DNA of 33,444 bases from a virus. The stretch spans positions 1 to 33,444 of IMG/VR virus record IMGVR_UViG_3300027142_000023, one strand, 5' to 3'. The position numbers were made by a program, and so were the translations under genes. The notes below the pieces were generated by a model. The model searched no databases and had not been told where the DNA came from. It worked only from the letters and a program-made list of their open reading frames with translations. Positions 5,457 to 28,689 of this stretch are shown here, in pieces. Position 1 is the first letter of the stretch. Each line of letters begins with the position of its first letter.

Positions 5457-5896
5457 GTGTTGTAAATGAACCTATTGTGATTTGGGCACAAGACCAAATG
5501 GTTGAAGTGATTTTGAATGAACCTGATGATTTTTTGAAGGTTCGTGAAACACTCACTCGTATTGGTGTCGCATCACGTAAAGAAAAGAAAATTTATCAAT
5601 CTTGCCATATTCTTCATAAGCAAGGTAAGTATTACCTCGTACACTTTAAGGAATTGTTTGCTCTTGACGGCAAACACGCAAATCTAACTGCGAATGACGT
5701 ACAACGTCGCAATCGCATTATTCAACTTCTTGCTGATTGGGGATTGATTACAATCGTCAAACCAGAAAAGATTACTGATATTGCTCCACTCAATCAAATC
5801 AAAGTCCTTGCCTATAAGGATAAGGCAGATTGGATTTTAGAGACCAAATACAATATTGGTGCCAAAAAGAAACGCACGGAAGAGGAAACCGAATAA
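5453..5896 (+). CDS. regA: RegA-like translational repressor
   Basis: 147 residues, with a core closely resembling T4 RegA (122 residues): EPDDFLKVRETLTRIGVASR, then YQSCHILHKQGKYYLVHFKE, then RRNRIIQLLADWGLI. RegA binds start regions of early phage mRNAs and blocks ribosome entry. This copy has an N-terminal extension of about 12 residues and a charged C-terminal tail (KKKRTEEETE). It is the last gene of the clamp/clamp-loader unit: an ATGA overlap links it to gp62, and a strong terminator follows 7 nt after the stop. Confidence 0.93.
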   Translation: MSVVNEPIVIWAQDQMVEVILNEPDDFLKVRETLTRIGVASRKEKKIYQSCHILHKQGKYYLVHFKELFALDGKHANLTANDVQRRNRIIQLLADWGLITIVKPEKITDIAPLNQIKVLAYKDKADWILETKYNIGAKKKRTEEETE

Positions 5897-6687: not shown

Positions 6688-6695
6688 TATAAATA
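6688..6695 (+). promoter_or_regulatory. T4-type late promoter of GIY-YIG gene
   Basis: TATAAATA directly after the terminator T-run and 24 nt before the ATG at 6720. An AGGTAGG SD (6704-6710) lies between. Confidence 0.8.
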
Positions 6696-6719
6696 CCAAT
6701 AAAAGGTAGGAATGTTTAA

Positions 6720-7292
6720 ATGAATTATTATACCTATGCTTATTTTGATGAAAATAATATTCCTTATTATATTGGTAAGGGAAAGGGCAATAGAGCCTGG
6801 GATAAAAATCATTCAGTTAGGGTGCCCACCAACGATAAAATTATTTTATTAAAGAAAAATTTAAGTGAAAATGAAGCATATAGACACGAAGTTTATATAA
6901 TAAGTATATTGGGGAGAAAAAATAAAAAGACTGATGGGGGTGATGCTCCTCCTGTATTTGTTTCTCATACAGAAGAAACTAAACAAAAAATGCGTAATAG
7001 AAAACATAGTGAAGAAACTAAAAAAAAGATAGGTGAGAAAAGTAAAGGTAGAATATTTCCAGAAGATGCTAAACTTTACCTTTCTAACTTATATAAGGGT
7101 AGAAAACTTTCCGATAAAACTAAGGAAAAGTTGAGTAAATCTTTATGTGGAAAACCAAAAAGTGAAGAAACAAAAAGAAAAATGAGTAAAGCAAAAAAGC
7201 AAATGAGCGAAGAAACAAAAAGAAAAATGAGTGAGGCAGCTAAGATAAGAGAAGCAAAAAAGAGAGAAGCAAAAAAGAGAGAAGAAACTTGA
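6720..7292 (+). CDS. GIY-YIG homing endonuclease with NUMOD3 repeats
   Basis: 190 residues. The N-terminal GIY-YIG fold shows YTYAYFDENNIPYYIGKGKG (residues 3-22), Arg at about 25 and a likely catalytic Glu at about 57 in the EVYIISILG helix. From residue 80 there are at least five NUMOD3-like DNA-binding repeats of the type HSEETKKKIGEKSKG. The tail is a low-complexity Lys/Arg/Glu helix made by short tandem repeats. The gene is free-standing, with its own terminator upstream and a late promoter. Proteins like this cut a specific site in a related phage's genome to spread their own locus. Its target is probably near here (hsp20-gp43 spacer), but that is inference. Confidence 0.88.
   Translation: MNYYTYAYFDENNIPYYIGKGKGNRAWDKNHSVRVPTNDKIILLKKNLSENEAYRHEVYIISILGRKNKKTDGGDAPPVFVSHTEETKQKMRNRKHSEETKKKIGEKSKGRIFPEDAKLYLSNLYKGRKLSDKTKEKLSKSLCGKPKSEETKRKMSKAKKQMSEETKRKMSEAAKIREAKKREAKKREET
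7164..7232 (+). repeat. 24-nt direct repeat within NUMOD3 coding region
   Basis: The same 24 nt occur at 7164-7187 and 7209-7232, each coding for EETKRKMS. The match at DNA level suggests recent duplication of a NUMOD3 unit. Confidence 0.85.
7251..7280 (+). repeat. 15-nt tandem duplication (REAKK x2)
   Basis: Two identical 15-nt units GAAGCAAAAAAGAGA extend the C-terminal basic tail of the GIY-YIG protein. This looks like slippage. Confidence 0.85.
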
Positions 7293-13532: not shown

Positions 13533-14195
13533 TTATTTTTTAACTTTAGAATTTGGTGCTGGTTCTCCAGTTCCAAATTTCCAACCCTCGTTTGACTTCA
13601 TATCAACATCTTCTGGAAGTATTCTTTTCCATCCTTTTGTTCCTGGTAAGTGCATTACCTTCTTACCTTTGTGTGCTTTTCCTCCAAGAGATGCTCTTTC
13701 TTGTCTTCCTTGATTGGATGCCCAGTAATTAAATTCTTTTGATGCTCTCTTCTTGCCTCCAAGAGATGCTCTTTCCTTTCTGCCTTCTTCTGTGCTCCAA
13801 TAATAAAAATTTTTAACTTTATCATTTAAATATTCTTGTTTTTGAGTTTCTATTCCTCTAATCATCCATTCTTTTCTTTCTTCTACTGGTGTTGAAAAGA
13901 AACCAAGTTGATTATCTCTACAAAACTCTCCTATTATTTTTCTGTGTTGAGGTGATAAGTTTGCTCCCAACATTTTCATAGATCTTAAATCATTTGGATT
14001 TTTGTAAATCTTCCAAAGTAAATAATGTGCTATGATATGTTCTCTAACATTCAAGTATGTAAGGTTGCAATCATCATCTGTTCCTCCCATATGTTTAGGA
14101 ACAATATGGTGTTCGTGTAGTCCTGAATATTTTTTATAGTTTTCTCTTCTTGACTTATTACCTTCACATAGGTTAGAATAGATACGATCAAACAT
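13533..14195 (-). CDS. HNH homing endonuclease, antisense inside the gp41 fracture
   Basis: 220 residues. The HNH motif is HEHHIVPKHMGGTDDDCNLT at about residues 27-46, followed by NVREHIIAHYLLWKIYKN, the usual zinc-less phage HNH layout. The C-terminal half has two copies of a FYYWSTEEGRKERASLGGK-like unit, probably DNA-binding, then GWKRI and GWKFG segments. It is transcribed opposite to gp41 from its own late promoter. It probably cleaves unfractured or intein-less gp41 alleles and so drives spread of the split locus, as proposed for fractured genes with nucleases in other phage data. That function is inferred. Confidence 0.9.
   Translation of the reverse strand: MFDRIYSNLCEGNKSRRENYKKYSGLHEHHIVPKHMGGTDDDCNLTYLNVREHIIAHYLLWKIYKNPNDLRSMKMLGANLSPQHRKIIGEFCRDNQLGFFSTPVEERKEWMIRGIETQKQEYLNDKVKNFYYWSTEEGRKERASLGGKKRASKEFNYWASNQGRQERASLGGKAHKGKKVMHLPGTKGWKRILPEDVDMKSNEGWKFGTGEPAPNSKVKK
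13681..13775 (-). repeat. 20-nt direct repeat in HNH gene (ERASLGG units)
   Basis: CCTCCAAGAGATGCTCTTTC occurs at 13681-13700 and 13756-13775 (+ strand), each encoding ERASLGG. The repeated DNA marks a duplicated binding module. Confidence 0.85.
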
Positions 14196-14223
14196 TCCCT
14201 GTCCCTGCTACTGCTAATACTAT

Positions 14224-14231
14224 TATTTATA
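14224..14231 (-). promoter_or_regulatory. T4-type late promoter for the HNH gene
   Basis: TATAAATA on the minus strand, 28 nt upstream of the HNH ATG; a CAGGGA SD (about 14196-14201) precedes that ATG. It lies only 4 nt from the divergent gp41 C-half start codon. Confidence 0.78.
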
Positions 14232-22216: not shown

Positions 22217-23218
22217 ATGAGTTTTGTTGATTCCAAATACATCGGGCTGGTATCTTCCCGACTGGATAAGTTTGCTAAGAAAAAAGAAGGTCTTTATAAC
22301 TTTCGGTGCCCTTACTGCGGTGACAGTCAAAGGACAAAGAGTAAGGCAAGAGGATATATTTACCAATTAAAGAACGACCATAATTTTAAGTGTCATAATT
22401 GTGGAACTTCTAGAACATTTACAAACTTTCTCAAAGATTTAGATGTTGTTCTTTACGACCAGTATGTGATGGAAAGATATAAAGAAGGAACTACTGGAAA
22501 AAGGTCTCAAACAAAGAACCCAGAGTTTAAGTTTGAGAAACCAAATTTTTCAAAAAAGGCATTTGACCTGCCTACCATCGCAGAACTAAATAAAGAACAT
22601 TCTGCAAGAAAATACTTAGAAGATAGAAAAATACCTAACAACTATCTGTGTGAATTGTATTTCTGTGAAAAGTTTAAAGAATGGACCAACACGCAAAAAC
22701 ACACCTTTGATAAAGTAGAACGGGACGAACCACGAATTATTATTCCTTTAATCAATAAAGGAGAAATATTTGGATTTCAAGGTCGTAGTTTAAATAAAAA
22801 ATCAAAGGTGAAATACATTACAATTATTCTTGATGATACACATCCAAAAATTTACAATTTGGATAAACCAGACTACGACAAAATTGTTTATGTTGTTGAA
22901 GGACCAATTGATAGTATGTTTTTGGATAATTCAATTGCTATGGTTGGTGCAGACATCGATAAAATGTTTTTCATATCCAACTTTGCAACAGAATTTGTAA
23001 TGGTGTATGACAATGAAAAACGAAATAAACAGATCGTAGATAGAATGGAAAAAGCAATACAAATGCGATTTCCAATCGTCATTTGGCCGAATGACTTGAA
23101 AGAAAAGGATATTAATGATATGATCCTTTCAGGAATTGATGCCCCAAAAATCATCAAGGAAAATACTTATATGGGATTAGAAGCAAAAGCAAAACTTATT
23201 GGATGGAAACGAGTATGA
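22217..23218 (+). CDS. 61: gp61-like DNA primase
   Basis: 333 residues, matching T4 gp61 (342), which makes RNA primers with the gp41 helicase. An N-terminal zinc finger has Cys31 and Cys34 (CPYCGD) and Cys59 and Cys62 (CHNCGT). A TOPRIM core follows: VVEGPIDSMF with Glu228 and Gly229, SIAMVGAD, and MVYDNEKRNK as the acidic DxD-like loop. IWPNDLKEKDINDMI is the usual C-terminal primase motif. The start at 22217 has the expected SFVDSKYIGLVSSRLDKF beginning. The stop overlaps the nrdA ATG. Confidence 0.93.
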   Translation: MSFVDSKYIGLVSSRLDKFAKKKEGLYNFRCPYCGDSQRTKSKARGYIYQLKNDHNFKCHNCGTSRTFTNFLKDLDVVLYDQYVMERYKEGTTGKRSQTKNPEFKFEKPNFSKKAFDLPTIAELNKEHSARKYLEDRKIPNNYLCELYFCEKFKEWTNTQKHTFDKVERDEPRIIIPLINKGEIFGFQGRSLNKKSKVKYITIILDDTHPKIYNLDKPDYDKIVYVVEGPIDSMFLDNSIAMVGADIDKMFFISNFATEFVMVYDNEKRNKQIVDRMEKAIQMRFPIVIWPNDLKEKDINDMILSGIDAPKIIKENTYMGLEAKAKLIGWKRV

Positions 23219-24909
23219 GCAACGGTACAAAGGTAATTAAGAGAAGTGGTGATAATGAACCTCTTGATCTCAATAAACTTCACTTAATGGTTGAGGAGGC
23301 ATGTAGGGACCTCTCTGGTGTTTCTGCATCACAGGTCGAGATGCAATCTGGTATTCAATTCTATGATGGAATTACAACAGCAGAAATTCAGGAAATTTTA
23401 ATTCGTTCTGCATCTGATTTGATTGATTTGGAAAATCCAAATTATCAATTTGTTGCAGCAAGACTACTTCTGTTTTCGGTGAGAAAATCTTTGTATGGAA
23501 GAGTTCAAGATCATCCTACTTTTGTAGATCATATTAAGAAATGTGTTTTTGCTGGAGTATATGATTCAGAAATCTTGACTAACTATACAGAGGAAGAACT
23601 TAATCGTCTTGGTGGTTATATTAATCATAACCGTGATTATCTATTTACTTATGCTGGTCTTCGTCAAGTAGTTGATAAGTATCTTGTTCAAGACCGTAGT
23701 GCTGGGCAAGTATATGAAACTCCACAGTTCATGTATATGATGATTTCTGCGACTATTTTTGCTAGATATCCAAAAGAAACTAGAATTTCTTATGTCAAAC
23801 GATACTACGACGCAATCTCCAAACACAAAATCAACATTCCCACACCTATCATGGCAGGAGTGCGAACTCCACTTCGACAATTTGCTAGCTGTGTTCTTGT
23901 TGATGTTGATGACACCCTCGATAGCATCTTTAGTTCTGATATGGCTATCGGCAGGTATGTTGCACAAAGGGCGGGAATCGGCATCAACGCAGGTAGAATC
24001 CGTGGCATCAACGCTAAAATCAGAGGTGGAGAAGTTCAGCACACAGGTGTTGTCCCATTCCTCAAGAAGTTTGAAGCAACTGTCCGATGCTGCACTCAAA
24101 ATGGCATCAGAGGTGGATCAGCAACTGTCCACTTCCCAATCTGGCACCAAGAAATCGAAGATATCCTAGTACTAAAAAATAACAAAGGAACCGAAGACAA
24201 CCGTGTTCGTAAGTTAGACTACTCTATCCAAATCTCTAAACTGTTCTATGAACGATTCATCAAGAATGAAGAGGTCTCTCTCTTCTCCCCACACGCAGTT
24301 CCTGGTCTGTATGATGCTTTTGGAACTGATGCTTTTGACGAGTTATATGTACGTTACGAACGAGATGAGTCTATTCCTAGAAAGACTATCGGAGCTCAAG
24401 AACTCTTTCTGGACCTCCTGAAAGAACGTGCTGAAACTGGTCGTATTTACATTATGAATATCGACCATTGCAATTCTCACTCATCCTTTATGGATAAGGT
24501 TGAGATGAGTAATCTTTGTGTTTCTGGTGATACTAAAATCAAAATTAGATATCCAGAACCCATTTATAATGATATTGGTGAAGTATCTGATTGGAGAGTT
24601 TGTGAGATTGAAATTCATATTGAAGATTTAGAAATTTACCTTTCTGATAGGATAGCTATAATTGCATGTCTTTGTGATGATGTTCCTCAAATAGAAGTTC
24701 TTTCTTATAATATAGAAACTAATCAACAAGAATGGGCACCTATTACAGCATTTGCCGAAACATCACCAAAAGCAAAGGTAATGAAAATTACTGATGAAGA
24801 AAGTGGTAAGAGTATTGTAGTTACACCAGAGCATCAAGTATTCACAAAAAATCGTGGATATGTAGTGGCAAAAGACCTAACCGAAACCGATGAGTTGGTA
24901 ATTAACTAA
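23215..24909 (+). CDS. nrdA: Ribonucleotide reductase large subunit NrdA, N-terminal half with split N-intein
   Basis: 564 residues from ATG 23215 (overlapping the gp61 TGA): 434 of NrdA and a 130-residue N-intein. The extein begins with an ATP-cone-like segment (TKVIKRSGDNEPLDLNKLHL) and carries ASCVLVDVDD, with the likely first redox Cys, then AGIGINAGRIRGINAKIRGG. It ends HSSFMDKVEMSNL, one residue before the catalytic Cys. An upstream in-frame ATG at 23203 would add four residues inside gp61. NrdA with NrdB makes dNTPs for phage replication. This half alone lacks the thiyl-radical Cys and cannot be active. Confidence 0.94.
   Translation: MSNGTKVIKRSGDNEPLDLNKLHLMVEEACRDLSGVSASQVEMQSGIQFYDGITTAEIQEILIRSASDLIDLENPNYQFVAARLLLFSVRKSLYGRVQDHPTFVDHIKKCVFAGVYDSEILTNYTEEELNRLGGYINHNRDYLFTYAGLRQVVDKYLVQDRSAGQVYETPQFMYMMISATIFARYPKETRISYVKRYYDAISKHKINIPTPIMAGVRTPLRQFASCVLVDVDDTLDSIFSSDMAIGRYVAQRAGIGINAGRIRGINAKIRGGEVQHTGVVPFLKKFEATVRCCTQNGIRGGSATVHFPIWHQEIEDILVLKNNKGTEDNRVRKLDYSIQISKLFYERFIKNEEVSLFSPHAVPGLYDAFGTDAFDELYVRYERDESIPRKTIGAQELFLDLLKERAETGRIYIMNIDHCNSHSSFMDKVEMSNLCVSGDTKIKIRYPEPIYNDIGEVSDWRVCEIEIHIEDLEIYLSDRIAIIACLCDDVPQIEVLSYNIETNQQEWAPITAFAETSPKAKVMKITDEESGKSIVVTPEHQVFTKNRGYVVAKDLTETDELVIN
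24517..24906 (+). other. Split intein N-fragment in NrdA (130 aa)
   Basis: It begins at Cys codon 24517 (CVSGDTKIKIRY, block A). Block B is KSIVVTPEHQVFTKNRGYVV, with the Thr-x-x-His, then AKDLTETDELVIN before the TAA. This is the conventional N-intein architecture. Confidence 0.92.
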
Positions 24910-24912
24910 TAG

Positions 24913-24968
24913 GATAGGGAGTGTAATTTCTACATTTTATAAATAGTTATGAGATTACACTTCCTATT
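24913..24968 (+). promoter_or_regulatory. Hairpin enclosing a late promoter, 5' of GIY-YIG gene
   Basis: The arms 24914-24927 and 24954-24967 pair over 14 bp with one G-U. The loop contains TATAAATA (24938-24945). Transcription from the late box should start near 24951, omitting the 5' arm, while read-through RNA from nrdA would form the stem and cover the bases immediately before the ATG at 24969. Confidence 0.82.
24938..24945 (+). promoter_or_regulatory. T4-type late promoter in hairpin loop
   Basis: Perfect TATAAATA, 23 nt before the ATG at 24969. Confidence 0.83.
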
Positions 24969-25640
24969 ATGAAAACCTATATTGTATATAAAATTACGAA
25001 TAAGAAAAACGGAAAGTCTTATATAGGAAAATCTGAATATCCATTAGAGCATCGTTGGAATCGTCATTTATCATCAGCAAGAAATGGTTCTAAATTTAGA
25101 TTTCATTCTGCTATTAGAAAATATGGGGAAGATTGTTGGGACTTATCTGTGATTGAAACTTACCAAACTGAAGATGAAAACTTTATTAATGAAAAGGAAA
25201 CTCACTTCATTAAACTCTTTGAAAGTGATACTAAAGGTTATAATGCTACTTCGGGGGGAACTGGTGGATGGATGCTTCCAAGATGCTCACAGGAGGTTCA
25301 GGAAGAGTGGAGAAATGGTATTTCCATAAGAACTATTGGTTACAATAATCCAAACTATTCTGGATACACTGATGAGGAACTCATAGAAGTAGGTGTAAAG
25401 TTTGCTAAAAAATATGGATTTATTGGTGGAAGGAAAAGAATAGTTGAGTTTGCTCTTAGTGAATTAAATATTAAGTTTCCAAAACATTTCTCCAAAAATA
25501 GATTTGACGGAAACCATCAAAACTTTTATAAATCTATTGAAGAACAAACTGGATTGGTGTATAATCCTTATTATAGAGACGAAACTCAAAGAAAACTTGC
25601 TAAACAACTTTTAGAACAAAATAGGAGAAAAAAATGCTAA
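24969..25640 (+). CDS. GIY-YIG homing endonuclease within the nrdA fracture
   Basis: 223 residues. The GIY-YIG core is KTYIVYKITNKKNGKSYIGK at residues 2-21, with Arg at about 29 in HRWNRHLSSA and the catalytic-type Glu in FINEKETHFIKLFES (about 75-82). The glycine-rich turn YNATSGGTGGWM follows, and the C-terminal half is an unrecognised, probably DNA-binding, domain (GGRKRIVEFALSELNIKFPK). It lies exactly between the NrdA N-intein and C-intein halves and overlaps the C-half start by 7 nt. It probably targets uninterrupted nrdA. Translation is likely restricted to late transcripts by the upstream hairpin. Confidence 0.92.
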   Translation: MKTYIVYKITNKKNGKSYIGKSEYPLEHRWNRHLSSARNGSKFRFHSAIRKYGEDCWDLSVIETYQTEDENFINEKETHFIKLFESDTKGYNATSGGTGGWMLPRCSQEVQEEWRNGISIRTIGYNNPNYSGYTDEELIEVGVKFAKKYGFIGGRKRIVEFALSELNIKFPKHFSKNRFDGNHQNFYKSIEEQTGLVYNPYYRDETQRKLAKQLLEQNRRKKC

Positions 25641-25732
25641 AGATTGAATATCTTGAAGAAGAAATCCCAGTTTATGATATTACAGTAGAAGGAACTCATA
25701 ATTTCTTCGCAAATGATATTCTAGTCCATAAT
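25634..25732 (+). other. Split intein C-fragment in NrdA (33 aa)
   Basis: MLKIEYLEEEIPVYDITVEG continues THNFFANDILVHN, which is blocks F and G with terminal His-Asn at 25727-25732 and Cys as the +1 residue. A textbook C-intein of 33 residues. Confidence 0.93.
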
Positions 25733-26728
25733 TGCCAGGAAATTACTCTTCCAACAAAACCACTTCAACACATTGATGATCCCAATGGGGAGATTGCACT
25801 TTGTATTCTTTCTGCTGTTAATGTTGGCAAAGTAAAGTCTGATGATGAATTTGAAGATCTTTGTAATCTTTCTGTTCGTGGTTTGGAAGAATTGATTGAT
25901 TATCAAAACTATCCTGTAGTTGCTGCAGAGATTGGAACCAAAGCACGTAGATCTTTGGGTGTTGGGTACATTGGTTTGGCACACTATCTTGCTAAACTTG
26001 GTTTTAATTACGATACTCAAGAAGCTTGGGATGCGGTTCATCAATTGTCTGAATCGTTCCAATATTTCCTTCTAAAAGCATCAAATGAAGTTGCTAAAGA
26101 AAAGGGTGCCTGTGAATATTTTAATCGCACTAAGTATTCGCAAGGTATTCTTCCAATTGATACTTACAAGAAAGATGTGGATGAAGTTTCTTCTGTTGCT
26201 CTTCAGCACGATTGGGAAGCGTTAAGGCAATCAATCAAAGAGTTTGGTCTCAGGCACTCCACTCTTACGGCACAGATGCCATCTGAATCCAGTTCTGTCG
26301 TCTCCAATGCCACAAACGGCATCGAACCACCTCGTGGATTTTTATCAATTAAGAAATCTAAAAAAGGTCCTCTCAAACAAATTGTTCCACAATATCAACA
26401 TCTTAAAAACAACTATACGTTGCTTTGGGATATGCCTAGCAATCGTGGTTATATTAATATTGTTGCAGTTATGCAGAAATTCTTCGATCAAGCAATTTCT
26501 GGAAACTGGTCGTATAATCCAGAAAATTATACCAATAATGAAGTTCCTGTTAGCGTAATGGCACAAGATATGCTTACTTGTTTTAAACTTGGGCATAAGA
26601 CGGCATATTATCAAAATACATATGACAATAAGACCGACGAAATTAAGGAGGAAAAAACTAATATTGACGATTTGGTTAAAGAACTTTTAGAAGGGGGGGA
26701 AGACGACTGTGAATCCTGTAAAATTTAG
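25634..26728 (+). CDS. nrdA: Ribonucleotide reductase NrdA, C-terminal half with split C-intein
   Basis: 364 residues: a 33-residue C-intein, then 331 of NrdA beginning CQEITLPTKPLQH, whose first Cys is the radical-forming cysteine (E. coli Cys439 equivalent) followed by the conserved Glu. Other landmarks are MPSESSSVVSNATNGIEPPR, the substrate-phosphate loop, and the C-terminal redox pair CESC. Total spliced length is 765, like E. coli NrdA (761). A good SD (AGGAG, 25623-25627) sits 6 nt before the ATG, inside the GIY-YIG gene. The end overlaps the nrdB region upstream of its start. Confidence 0.94.
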   Translation: MLKIEYLEEEIPVYDITVEGTHNFFANDILVHNCQEITLPTKPLQHIDDPNGEIALCILSAVNVGKVKSDDEFEDLCNLSVRGLEELIDYQNYPVVAAEIGTKARRSLGVGYIGLAHYLAKLGFNYDTQEAWDAVHQLSESFQYFLLKASNEVAKEKGACEYFNRTKYSQGILPIDTYKKDVDEVSSVALQHDWEALRQSIKEFGLRHSTLTAQMPSESSSVVSNATNGIEPPRGFLSIKKSKKGPLKQIVPQYQHLKNNYTLLWDMPSNRGYINIVAVMQKFFDQAISGNWSYNPENYTNNEVPVSVMAQDMLTCFKLGHKTAYYQNTYDNKTDEIKEEKTNIDDLVKELLEGGEDDCESCKI

Positions 26729-27898: not shown

Positions 27899-27952
27899 AC
27901 AAGAAACTGAAATATAATATTATATAAATAGTATTAGAGTTCAGTTTCTTGT
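27899..27952 (+). promoter_or_regulatory. Hairpin enclosing a late promoter, 3' of nrdB
   Basis: A perfect 13-bp inverted repeat ACAAGAAACTGAA / TTCAGTTTCTTGT (27899-27911 and 27940-27952) surrounds a 28-nt loop with TATAAATA. A late transcript would start near 27936, without the 5' arm. Read-through RNA from nrdB would fold and occlude the start region at 27955. Confidence 0.85.
27923..27930 (+). promoter_or_regulatory. T4-type late promoter in hairpin loop
   Basis: Perfect TATAAATA, 24 nt before the ATG at 27955. Confidence 0.83.
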
Positions 27953-27954
27953 TT

Positions 27955-28689
27955 ATGTATTATGTTTATGAATTAATAGACCCAAGAGTCAATCTGCCTT
28001 TTTATGTTGGAAAGGGAAAAGATGATCGGGTTTATTTTCATTTGTCCGAAAAAACAAGAGCAAAAAGTGATAATGAAAGAAAATTTAATAAAATACAAAA
28101 AATAAGAAAGGAGGGGTATGAACCAGAAGTCAAAATAGTTGAATATTTTGAAAATGAAAATGATGCTTATTTTTATGAAGAATCATTAATACAAAAATAT
28201 GGAAGAATACGATATGATGAGGGTGGAATATTAACAAATATTTGTGAAAGCTCAAGACCACCAAATCATAGAGGAAAAACATACCAAGAAATATATGGTG
28301 ATAAGTGGGAAGACCAAATAGAAAAAAGAAGAAATTTGCAACTTTCTGTTGGTGGATATGGACCTAAAAAACATAGTGAAGAAACAAAAAGGAAAATAAG
28401 TAAAAAGGTTGCGGGAGAGAATAATCCAAGTTATGGTATTCCTTGTAGTGAAGAAAGAAAAAGAAAAATAAGTGAAAAGGCAAAGGAAAGATATGCTGCA
28501 GGTTTTAAACCACCATCTGCAAAAATTTGGAAACTCACATCTCCAGAAAATAAAGAATATGTTATTGTTGGTGGATTAAAGGAGTTTTGTAAATCTCAAA
28601 ATATCTCATATGCTACTATGAGTGCCGCAATTAAGTATGATAGAAGAGGTCCAAGAAGAAATGGGTGGAGTATTGAAGAGAAAATTTAG
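27955..28689 (+). CDS. GIY-YIG homing endonuclease with NUMOD3 repeats, 3' of nrdB
   Basis: 244 residues from ATG 27955; the in-frame TTG at 27949 lies inside the hairpin arm and is rejected. The core is YYVYELIDPRVNLPFYVGKG at residues 2-21, with Arg at about 25 and a Glu-rich DAYFYEESLIQKYG helix. Two NUMOD3-like repeats follow (HSEETKRKISKKVAG, CSEERKRKISEKAKE). A NUMOD1-like end has VIVGGLKEFCKSQNISYATM and NGWSIEEKI. The 3' end overlaps the next gene by 29 nt. Late expression is expected from the hairpin arrangement. Likely target: the nrdB 3' region of related phages. Confidence 0.9.
   Translation: MYYVYELIDPRVNLPFYVGKGKDDRVYFHLSEKTRAKSDNERKFNKIQKIRKEGYEPEVKIVEYFENENDAYFYEESLIQKYGRIRYDEGGILTNICESSRPPNHRGKTYQEIYGDKWEDQIEKRRNLQLSVGGYGPKKHSEETKRKISKKVAGENNPSYGIPCSEERKRKISEKAKERYAAGFKPPSAKIWKLTSPENKEYVIVGGLKEFCKSQNISYATMSAAIKYDRRGPRRNGWSIEEKI

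What the first reader, a model, noticed from the sequence alone, without database searches (positions are those of the whole stretch)
24913..24968. Hairpin with late promoter in its loop before the nrdA-embedded GIY-YIG gene
A 14-bp stem surrounds a perfect TATAAATA, and the 3' arm ends 1 nt before the ATG. Early RNA running through from nrdA should fold and block initiation. RNA started at the late box (about 24951) lacks the 5' arm and is free. This logic is known for T4 I-TevI. It would allow the nrdA C-half downstream to be read early while delaying the nuclease.
Basis: partly seen in the sequence, partly recalled or inferred. Interest (0 to 1): 0.65.

Follow-up and report, generated by a model that had tools for sequence, protein, structure and literature searches.

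The report
Hairpin that delays a phage endonuclease
In front of a DNA-cutting "selfish" gene that sits inside a cyanophage's split ribonucleotide reductase gene, a hairpin with a late promoter in its loop probably keeps the cutter silent until late infection, and the hairpin's arms look like two mirror copies of the DNA site the cutter may recognise.

Summary
A 14-bp stem (24914-24967) encloses a perfect TATAAATA (24938-24945) and ends 1 nt before the ATG of a GIY-YIG gene (24969-25640). The host gene is a "fractured" nrdA: the GIY-YIG gene lies between the halves of a split intein (N half 24517-24906, C half 25634-25732). Hairpin, late box and nuclease travel as one unit: 86 of 86 relatives examined keep box and stem. 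HEG-free contiguous inteins exist, and one relative has lost box and nuclease but kept the 5' arm. The same design precedes a second GIY-YIG gene in the window (27955), whose stem covaries, and unrelated GIY-YIG and HNH genes elsewhere. The I-TevI-type delay reading is well supported by anatomy, though unproven. One correction: the 3' arm holds no Shine-Dalgarno and the AUG is outside the stem, so the block would act on ribosome landing. New here: both arms resemble nrdA just after the intein insertion point (12/14 in the window; 14/14 in 20 of 84 loci; 16 of 16 bases in an intein-free cultured phage). This suggests a double operator for autorepression, as known singly for I-TevI. Best filed as a new variant of a known kind.

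The parts
23203..24909 (+). nrdA N-terminal part (438 aa of NrdA) fused to the N half of a split intein (24517-24906), stop 24907-24909
   Evidence: (Ribonuc_red_lgC, TIGR01445 intein N-terminal region)
24914..24930 (+). 5' arm of the hairpin; its reverse complement resembles the nrdA homing-site right half (12/14 here, 14/14 in some relatives)
24938..24945 (+). T4-type late promoter box TATAAATA in the loop
   Evidence: conserved in 84 of 86 relatives, GATAAATA in 2
24951..24967 (+). 3' arm of the hairpin; predicted late start at 24951; resembles nrdA 25739-25752 (12/14)
24969..25640 (+). free-standing GIY-YIG homing endonuclease gene (223 aa)
   Evidence: PF01541, E 3.6e-12; phrog_314 homing endonuclease; Foldseek best match I-TevI catalytic domain
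25623..25627 (+). Shine-Dalgarno AGGAG of the NrdA C half, 6 nt before its ATG
   Evidence: sequence; -7.3 kcal/mol to the anti-SD
25634..26728 (+). C half of the split intein (25634-25732) fused to the NrdA C-terminal part (331 aa); its ATG overlaps the nuclease stop
   Evidence: (TIGR01443 intein C-terminal region)
25739..25752 (+). nrdA sequence 6 nt after the intein insertion point that the hairpin arms resemble (codons E I T L P)
27899..27952 (+). second hairpin with TATAAATA (27923-27930) in its loop, ending 2 nt before the ATG of another GIY-YIG gene
   Evidence: (I1)
27955..28689 (+). second GIY-YIG homing endonuclease gene, just after nrdB

Best explanation
The element is the 5' control region of a mobile homing-endonuclease cassette that was inserted into a mini-intein in nrdA and split it. 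Middle-time RNA read through from nrdA carries both arms. It folds and covers the ribosome landing zone up to 1 nt before the AUG, so the nuclease is not made while the two NrdA-intein halves are. When the phage switches to late transcription, RNA starts at 24951 inside the structure, has no 5' arm, and gives an open, 18-nt, SD-less leader that can be translated. Shown: the anatomy, its conservation, its co-inheritance with the nuclease, covariation in the sister family, and predicted openness. Inferred: that the late box is used, that the fold blocks translation, and that a late switch is needed. A second, more tentative layer: the arms are inverted copies of the right half of the homing site, so the nuclease may bind them as operators and shut its own late promoter down.
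For: Hairpin far beyond chance. Box plus stem in 86 of 86 relatives with enough upstream sequence, 95.8% of 645 pair cells kept. Arms 90% identical to the window (329 of 364) where four-fold sites of the nuclease gene are 65% (174 of 267) (one of the 13 loci, L057, is counted out of register at 9 of 28). Contiguous inteins without the cassette, and L205 with box and nuclease deleted but the 5' arm kept. Sister family (27955): stem pairs covary beyond all 500 shuffles. Among TATAAATA boxes followed by an ORF start, stems of -18 kcal/mol or better occur in 26 of 26 of this family, 25 of 28 of the sister family, 1 of 19 of the 6720 family, and 17 of 77 remaining, of which 14 look like nucleases by eye (representatives tested). 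Independent cases in cultured phages: KP13-7 and TG1, both in split-intein nrdA. Predicted openness. Precedent: I-TevI, I-TevII, I-TevIII, segB, Aeh1 mobE (PMC2988022 passages; PMC3014915 passages).
Against: No Shine-Dalgarno in the 3' arm and AUG outside the stem. Within this family alone covariation is not significant (46 of 500 shuffles reach the score; one pair with a full double change, L236). The family of GIY-YIG gene 6720 mostly lacks the design, so it is not universal. No transcript start, translation or binding data. Three genes that are not recognisable nucleases (L084, L086, L136) also have strong stems (L086 and L136 scanned).
Confidence: 0.7

Rival explanations
1. The inverted repeat is first of all a DNA operator: two inverted copies of the homing-site half flank the late box so that the nuclease represses its own promoter. 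RNA folding is a by-product.
For: Arms match nrdA +6 to +19 after the insertion point: mean 12.6/14 with a two-way base, top of 1544 positions; 11.3 to 11.9/14 for exact arms against a maximum of 10.7 for 658 nuclease-coding and 10.5 for 376 intein 14-mers; an arm is 14/14 in 20 of 84 loci; the intein-free phage DSL-LC03 has the 3' arm's 16 nt GAGATTACACTTCCTA at the uninterrupted site. Arm sequence is conserved, not only its pairing. Precedent: I-TevI operator 15/20 like its homing site (PMC2988022 section 10).
Against: The sister family keeps pairing while its sequence changes, and its subfamily with the window copy shows no target likeness in nrdB. TG1 and KP13-7 arms do not match their own exons (9/14 and 8/14). 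The loci are related, so the match is close to one event. Binding was not tested.
Confidence: 0.4
2. The arm likeness to nrdA is a relic of insertion or break repair (captured target DNA) and has no function now; the hairpin only delays translation.
For: The element is the edge of the cassette, and the upstream flank diverges at the 5' arm base. Capture of target DNA at repaired breaks is established knowledge (recalled).
Against: The arms stay near constant while nrdA sites drift at synonymous positions, which needs selection on the arms.
Confidence: 0.3
3. The hairpin is a transcription terminator or an RNA-processing site between nrdA parts.
For: Stable stem between two reading frames.
Against: No U tract follows; the stem is A+T-rich and abuts an AUG. 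A terminator here would cut off the NrdA C half. A terminator-plus-late-box design is seen instead before the gene at 6720.
Confidence: 0.05

Closest known systems
T4 I-TevI (also I-TevII, I-TevIII) late promoter and hairpin
   Same: Late promoter placed so that only read-through RNA forms the inhibitory hairpin; nuclease inside an early or middle nucleotide-metabolism gene; GIY-YIG catalytic fold (I-TevI); homing-site-like sequence at the promoter
   Different: Split intein instead of group I intron; no Shine-Dalgarno in the stem; two inverted homing-site-like arms instead of one operator
Aeh1 mobE in nrdA
   Same: Free-standing nuclease splitting nrdA, late promoter, hairpin upstream
   Different: HNH family, RBS sequestered (PMC2988022 passages); no split intein is mentioned in those passages, though PMC3653736 (passages) calls the Aeh1 insert an intein
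Fractured genes with split inteins (Dassa 2009; not held, known through reference lists and PMC3653736 passages)
   Same: nrdA interrupted by inteins in metagenome data; by recall, split intein halves with a free-standing nuclease between them
   Different: No control element is described in the passages that I could read
Yersinia T4-like phage vB_YenM_TG1 and Klebsiella phage KP13-7 nrdA
   Same: Split-intein nrdA with nuclease preceded by a hairpin with a late-type box in the loop
   Different: TG1: HNH nuclease, Shine-Dalgarno in the 3' arm, no target likeness. KP13-7: box AATAAATA, arms 8/14 to its own exon, nrdA in more fragments

Membership tests
I-TevI-type late-promoter hairpin switch | T4-type late box inside a stem-loop directly before the nuclease start codon | tested here: met
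I-TevI-type late-promoter hairpin switch | Shine-Dalgarno hidden in the stem | tested here: not met
   no SD in the 20 nt before the ATG; -2.7 kcal/mol to the anti-SD
I-TevI-type late-promoter hairpin switch | predicted late transcript lacks the 5' arm and opens the initiation region | tested here: met
   0.15 to 0.57 unpaired, 38 of 38 distinct; prediction only
I-TevI-type late-promoter hairpin switch | nuclease made only late | not testable with these tools
   needs RNA and protein data
I-TevI-type late-promoter hairpin switch | embedded in an early or middle transcription unit | tested here: inconclusive
   nrdA/nrdB are middle in P-HM2 (PMC5082946 passages); not measured for this phage
Fractured gene with split intein | intein N and C motifs at the ends of two reading frames, extein seamless when joined | tested here: met
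   joined NrdA 769 aa, 82% identical to DSL-LC03 with 1 gap
Fractured gene with split intein | free-standing nuclease gene between the halves | tested here: met
Fractured gene with split intein | protein trans-splicing | not testable with these tools
   bench only
GIY-YIG homing endonucleases | GIY-YIG catalytic domain | tested here: met
   PF01541 46.8 bits against cut-off 22.6; 1MK0 E 7.1e-4, model of moderate to low confidence
I-TevI-type autorepressor | promoter-proximal sequence like the homing site | tested here: met
   the homing site itself is inferred from the insertion point
I-TevI-type autorepressor | nuclease binds it and lowers promoter activity | not testable with these tools
   bench only
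Intrinsic terminator | G+C-rich stem followed by U tract | tested here: not met
   sequence after 24967 is TATGAAAACC

The most novel reading that the evidence does not exclude
One palindrome does two jobs: as DNA its arms are two inverted copies of the nuclease's own homing-site half that let the nuclease shut off its late promoter, and as read-through RNA the same arms fold on each other and keep the nuclease untranslated while the split-intein host protein is made. The target sequence itself would thus have been turned into the RNA timer.
Probability: 0.33. Interest if true: 0.68.

Novelty: new variant of a known kind. Interest (0 to 1): 0.52.

Why it matters
It shows how a selfish nuclease can break an essential gene's reading frame and still be tolerated: the host protein is rebuilt by trans-splicing from halves that can be translated while the nuclease waits. 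The relatives give a readable series (whole mini-intein, split intein with nuclease, split intein after nuclease loss in L205), which bears on how split inteins arise. The same promoter-in-hairpin design recurs with unrelated stems before several nuclease families, so it may help to recognise homing genes in phage metagenomes and, if the arm likeness is functional, to predict their target sites from the arms.

Tried and rejected
Terminator reading: rejected, no U tract. Classic RBS sequestration: not met, no Shine-Dalgarno. Covariation inside the window's own family: not significant. Design as a rule for all homing genes: rejected, because the gene at 6720 has a terminator followed by a late box, only 1 of 19 of its family's boxes has a strong stem, and the HNH gene 13533-14195 has a box but only a weak stem (-12.6). 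Target likeness for the window's second nuclease (27955): none found in the nrdB end or up to about 1.7 kb upstream. Its distant subfamily B does show likeness to nrdB codons about 60 nt before the stop (10.6/13, 0 of 437 null windows, but the null maximum is 10.1). Arms against own exon in KP13-7 (8/14) and TG1 (9/14): negative. Relatives of the KP13-7 nuclease in viral contigs: none. The nuclease model (pLDDT 63, pTM 0.38) is too weak to say how its C-terminal domain binds DNA.

Rows dropped before counts: four of the 80 loci (L008, L061, L071, L075), which are cut off at or near the start; L034, which has less than 60 nt upstream; one search looked only at 30 of the 80 loci, chosen as not already in the nuclease set, and added ten of them to the hairpin set; identical rows were merged where 'distinct' is said; one search skipped 2 loci of the sister family without a box or start; one search left out 2 loci without a readable exon; one search compared 13 chosen loci.

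Full report
What is there. The window is a virus record of 33,444 bases. Its nrdA is closest to T4-like Synechococcus phages; the 30 best of 776 records with a match each cover at most 66% of the fractured region, in two pieces, so the insert is missing there. NrdA is encoded in two parts. The first ends with the N half of an intein and a stop codon (24909). The second begins with the C half (25634). Between them lies a 223-aa GIY-YIG gene. Joined, the NrdA parts give 769 aa, 82% identical with one gap to intact NrdA of phage DSL-LC03, in which the insertion point is uninterrupted. The first extein residue after the intein is the Cys of SNLCQEI, which by recall is the radical cysteine of class I reductases. 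So the nuclease does not sit in an intron and does not simply break nrdA: it sits in a split intein.

The hairpin. All first-stage coordinates hold. The fold is far outside chance (z -5.18). Only two of the 12 TATAAATA boxes in the window lie in stems stronger than -18 kcal/mol, and both precede GIY-YIG genes.

Relatives. A search of viral contigs with the nuclease found 103 relatives, of which 80 were kept. Wherever the flanks are long enough, both intein halves surround it. With ten further loci from an intein search and the window, 86 loci have at least 60 nt upstream. In 84 the loop box is TATAAATA and in 2 it is GATAAATA. There are 38 distinct hairpins. They keep 95.8% of pair cells. Upstream of the 5' arm the sequences diverge abruptly, so the hairpin is the left edge of the mobile unit. 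In 12 of the 30 intein-search loci looked at the halves are one reading frame without the nuclease between them (L172-L175, L186-L188, L200, L201, L220, L230, L235). In L205 the intein is split, but nuclease and late box are gone and the 5' arm is followed directly by the C half's Shine-Dalgarno and start. The order whole, invaded, nuclease lost is inferred.

Structure against sequence. In this family the arms barely vary, so covariation cannot speak, apart from one full exchange in L236 with L171 as the half-way form. In the sister family before the second GIY-YIG gene (27955), which mostly follows nrdB, the stem is kept by paired changes: 9 pairs with changes on both sides, none of 500 shuffles reaching that or the covariation score (the alignment was made by sequence and not fitted to the structure). 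Beyond these, stems of unrelated sequence enclose a late box before other nucleases: L249 (-36.0), L077 (-35.5), L018, L045 and L046 (GIY-YIG type), L248 and L281 (HNH). In cultured phages, TG1 has a 12-bp stem around TATAAATA with AGGAG in its 3' arm before an HNH gene in a split-intein nrdA, and KP13-7 has a stem around AATAAATA before a 35% identical GIY-YIG gene in a split-intein nrdA. MA01 and S-CREM2 have long stems that enclose a terminator-like hairpin and the box.

How it may work. Read-through RNA hides the 15 nt before the AUG (mean unpaired 0.15) and late RNA frees them (0.57), in 38 of 38 distinct hairpins; for the sister family 0.27 and 0.51, in 33 of 35. The AUG itself does not change (0.52 and 0.47). 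There is no Shine-Dalgarno, but many genes of this window also lack one. The NrdA C half has its own (AGGAG 25623-25627). Hence halves on, nuclease off in middle RNA is plausible. nrdA and nrdB belong to the middle cluster of cyanophage P-HM2 (PMC5082946, passages). A T4-like late consensus is reported for cyanophage S-PM2 in silico (PMC2988020, passages).

Arms and target. The 14-mer of the 3' arm, GAGATTACACTTCC, and the reverse complement of the 5' arm resemble nrdA at +6 to +19 after the insertion point. In the window each arm matches 12/14. That alone is weak: 17 and 21 of 397 random 120-mers do as well for the two strands. Across 41 distinct exons the site is the best of 1544 positions, mean 12.6 with a two-way base at position 3, next best 9.1. 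With exact arms the means over 42 distinct exons are 11.6 and 11.9 (11.3 for the window's own 5' arm), against a maximum of 10.7 among 658 nuclease-coding 14-mers and 10.5 among 376 intein 14-mers. An arm is identical (14/14) to the site in 20 of 84 loci and at least 12/14 in 59 of 84; 7 of 45 distinct hairpin-site combinations are 14/14, and 3 of 45 are 9 or less. Intein-free DSL-LC03 has GAGATTACACTTCCTA, all 16 bases, at the site. The loci are related, so this is evidence for one striking likeness and not for many. I-TevI's operator is 15/20 like its homing site and is bound equally well (PMC2988022, section 10 read). Here both arms carry the likeness in inverted order. In subfamily B of the sister family the arm resembles nrdB (10.6/13, top of 11,760 comparisons, 0 of 437 null windows). 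In subfamily A, which includes the window's second nuclease, nothing was found. In KP13-7 the arms are a variant of the cyanophage arms with the same E-I-T-L-P reading (GAAATCACACTACC) and two full paired exchanges, but its own exon matches only 8/14.

Literature. The hairpin-plus-late-promoter control of homing genes is known for I-TevI, I-TevII, I-TevIII, segB and Aeh1 mobE (PMC2988022 passages and section 10; PMC3014915 passages). Inteins in metagenomic nrdA are known (PMC3653736 passages, citing Dassa 2009, which was not held). In nine searches of the open library I saw no listing whose title or abstract start describes this control for a split-intein nuclease, or arms that copy the target. 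Most hits were not opened and subscription papers are largely missing.

Verdict. The setting (split intein) and the arm-target likeness make it a new variant of a known kind.

Noticed in passing
window 27899-28689: Second GIY-YIG gene after nrdB with the same promoter-in-hairpin design; its family shows covarying stems.
   Followed up: yes
window 6688-7292: Third GIY-YIG-type gene (phrog_314 homing endonuclease, NUMOD3), preceded by a terminator-like hairpin, then TATAAATA and a good Shine-Dalgarno: a different control design.
   Followed up: partly
window 13533-14231, minus strand: HNH-type homing endonuclease gene with its own TATAAATA (14224-14231) but only a weak stem; with it, all four homing genes found in the window have a perfect late box starting 31 to 36 nt before the start codon.
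   Followed up: partly
L205: Split intein without nuclease: late box and nuclease deleted, 5' arm left as a scar directly before the C half's Shine-Dalgarno. A possible origin of nuclease-free split inteins.
   Followed up: partly
L099, upstream of 2001: The late box between the arms is inverted (TATTTATA on the gene strand), as if the loop had flipped; natural inversion or assembly fault.
   Followed up: no
L172 to L175, L186, L188; L172:3455-4216: NrdA with a contiguous intein stops again shortly after the splice site and is followed (in L172) by a homing-endonuclease-like gene (phrog_314): a second break in the same gene.
   Followed up: no
L319 (Klebsiella phage KP13-7): nrdA in several pieces with what looks like another intein C-terminal end near 5549, besides the GIY-YIG split intein.
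   Followed up: no
L322 and L323 (Synechococcus phages MA01, S-CREM2), upstream of 1498: Late box inside a 41 to 48 kcal/mol fold that also encloses a terminator-like hairpin, before a GIY-YIG-like gene next to primase and nrdA.
   Followed up: no
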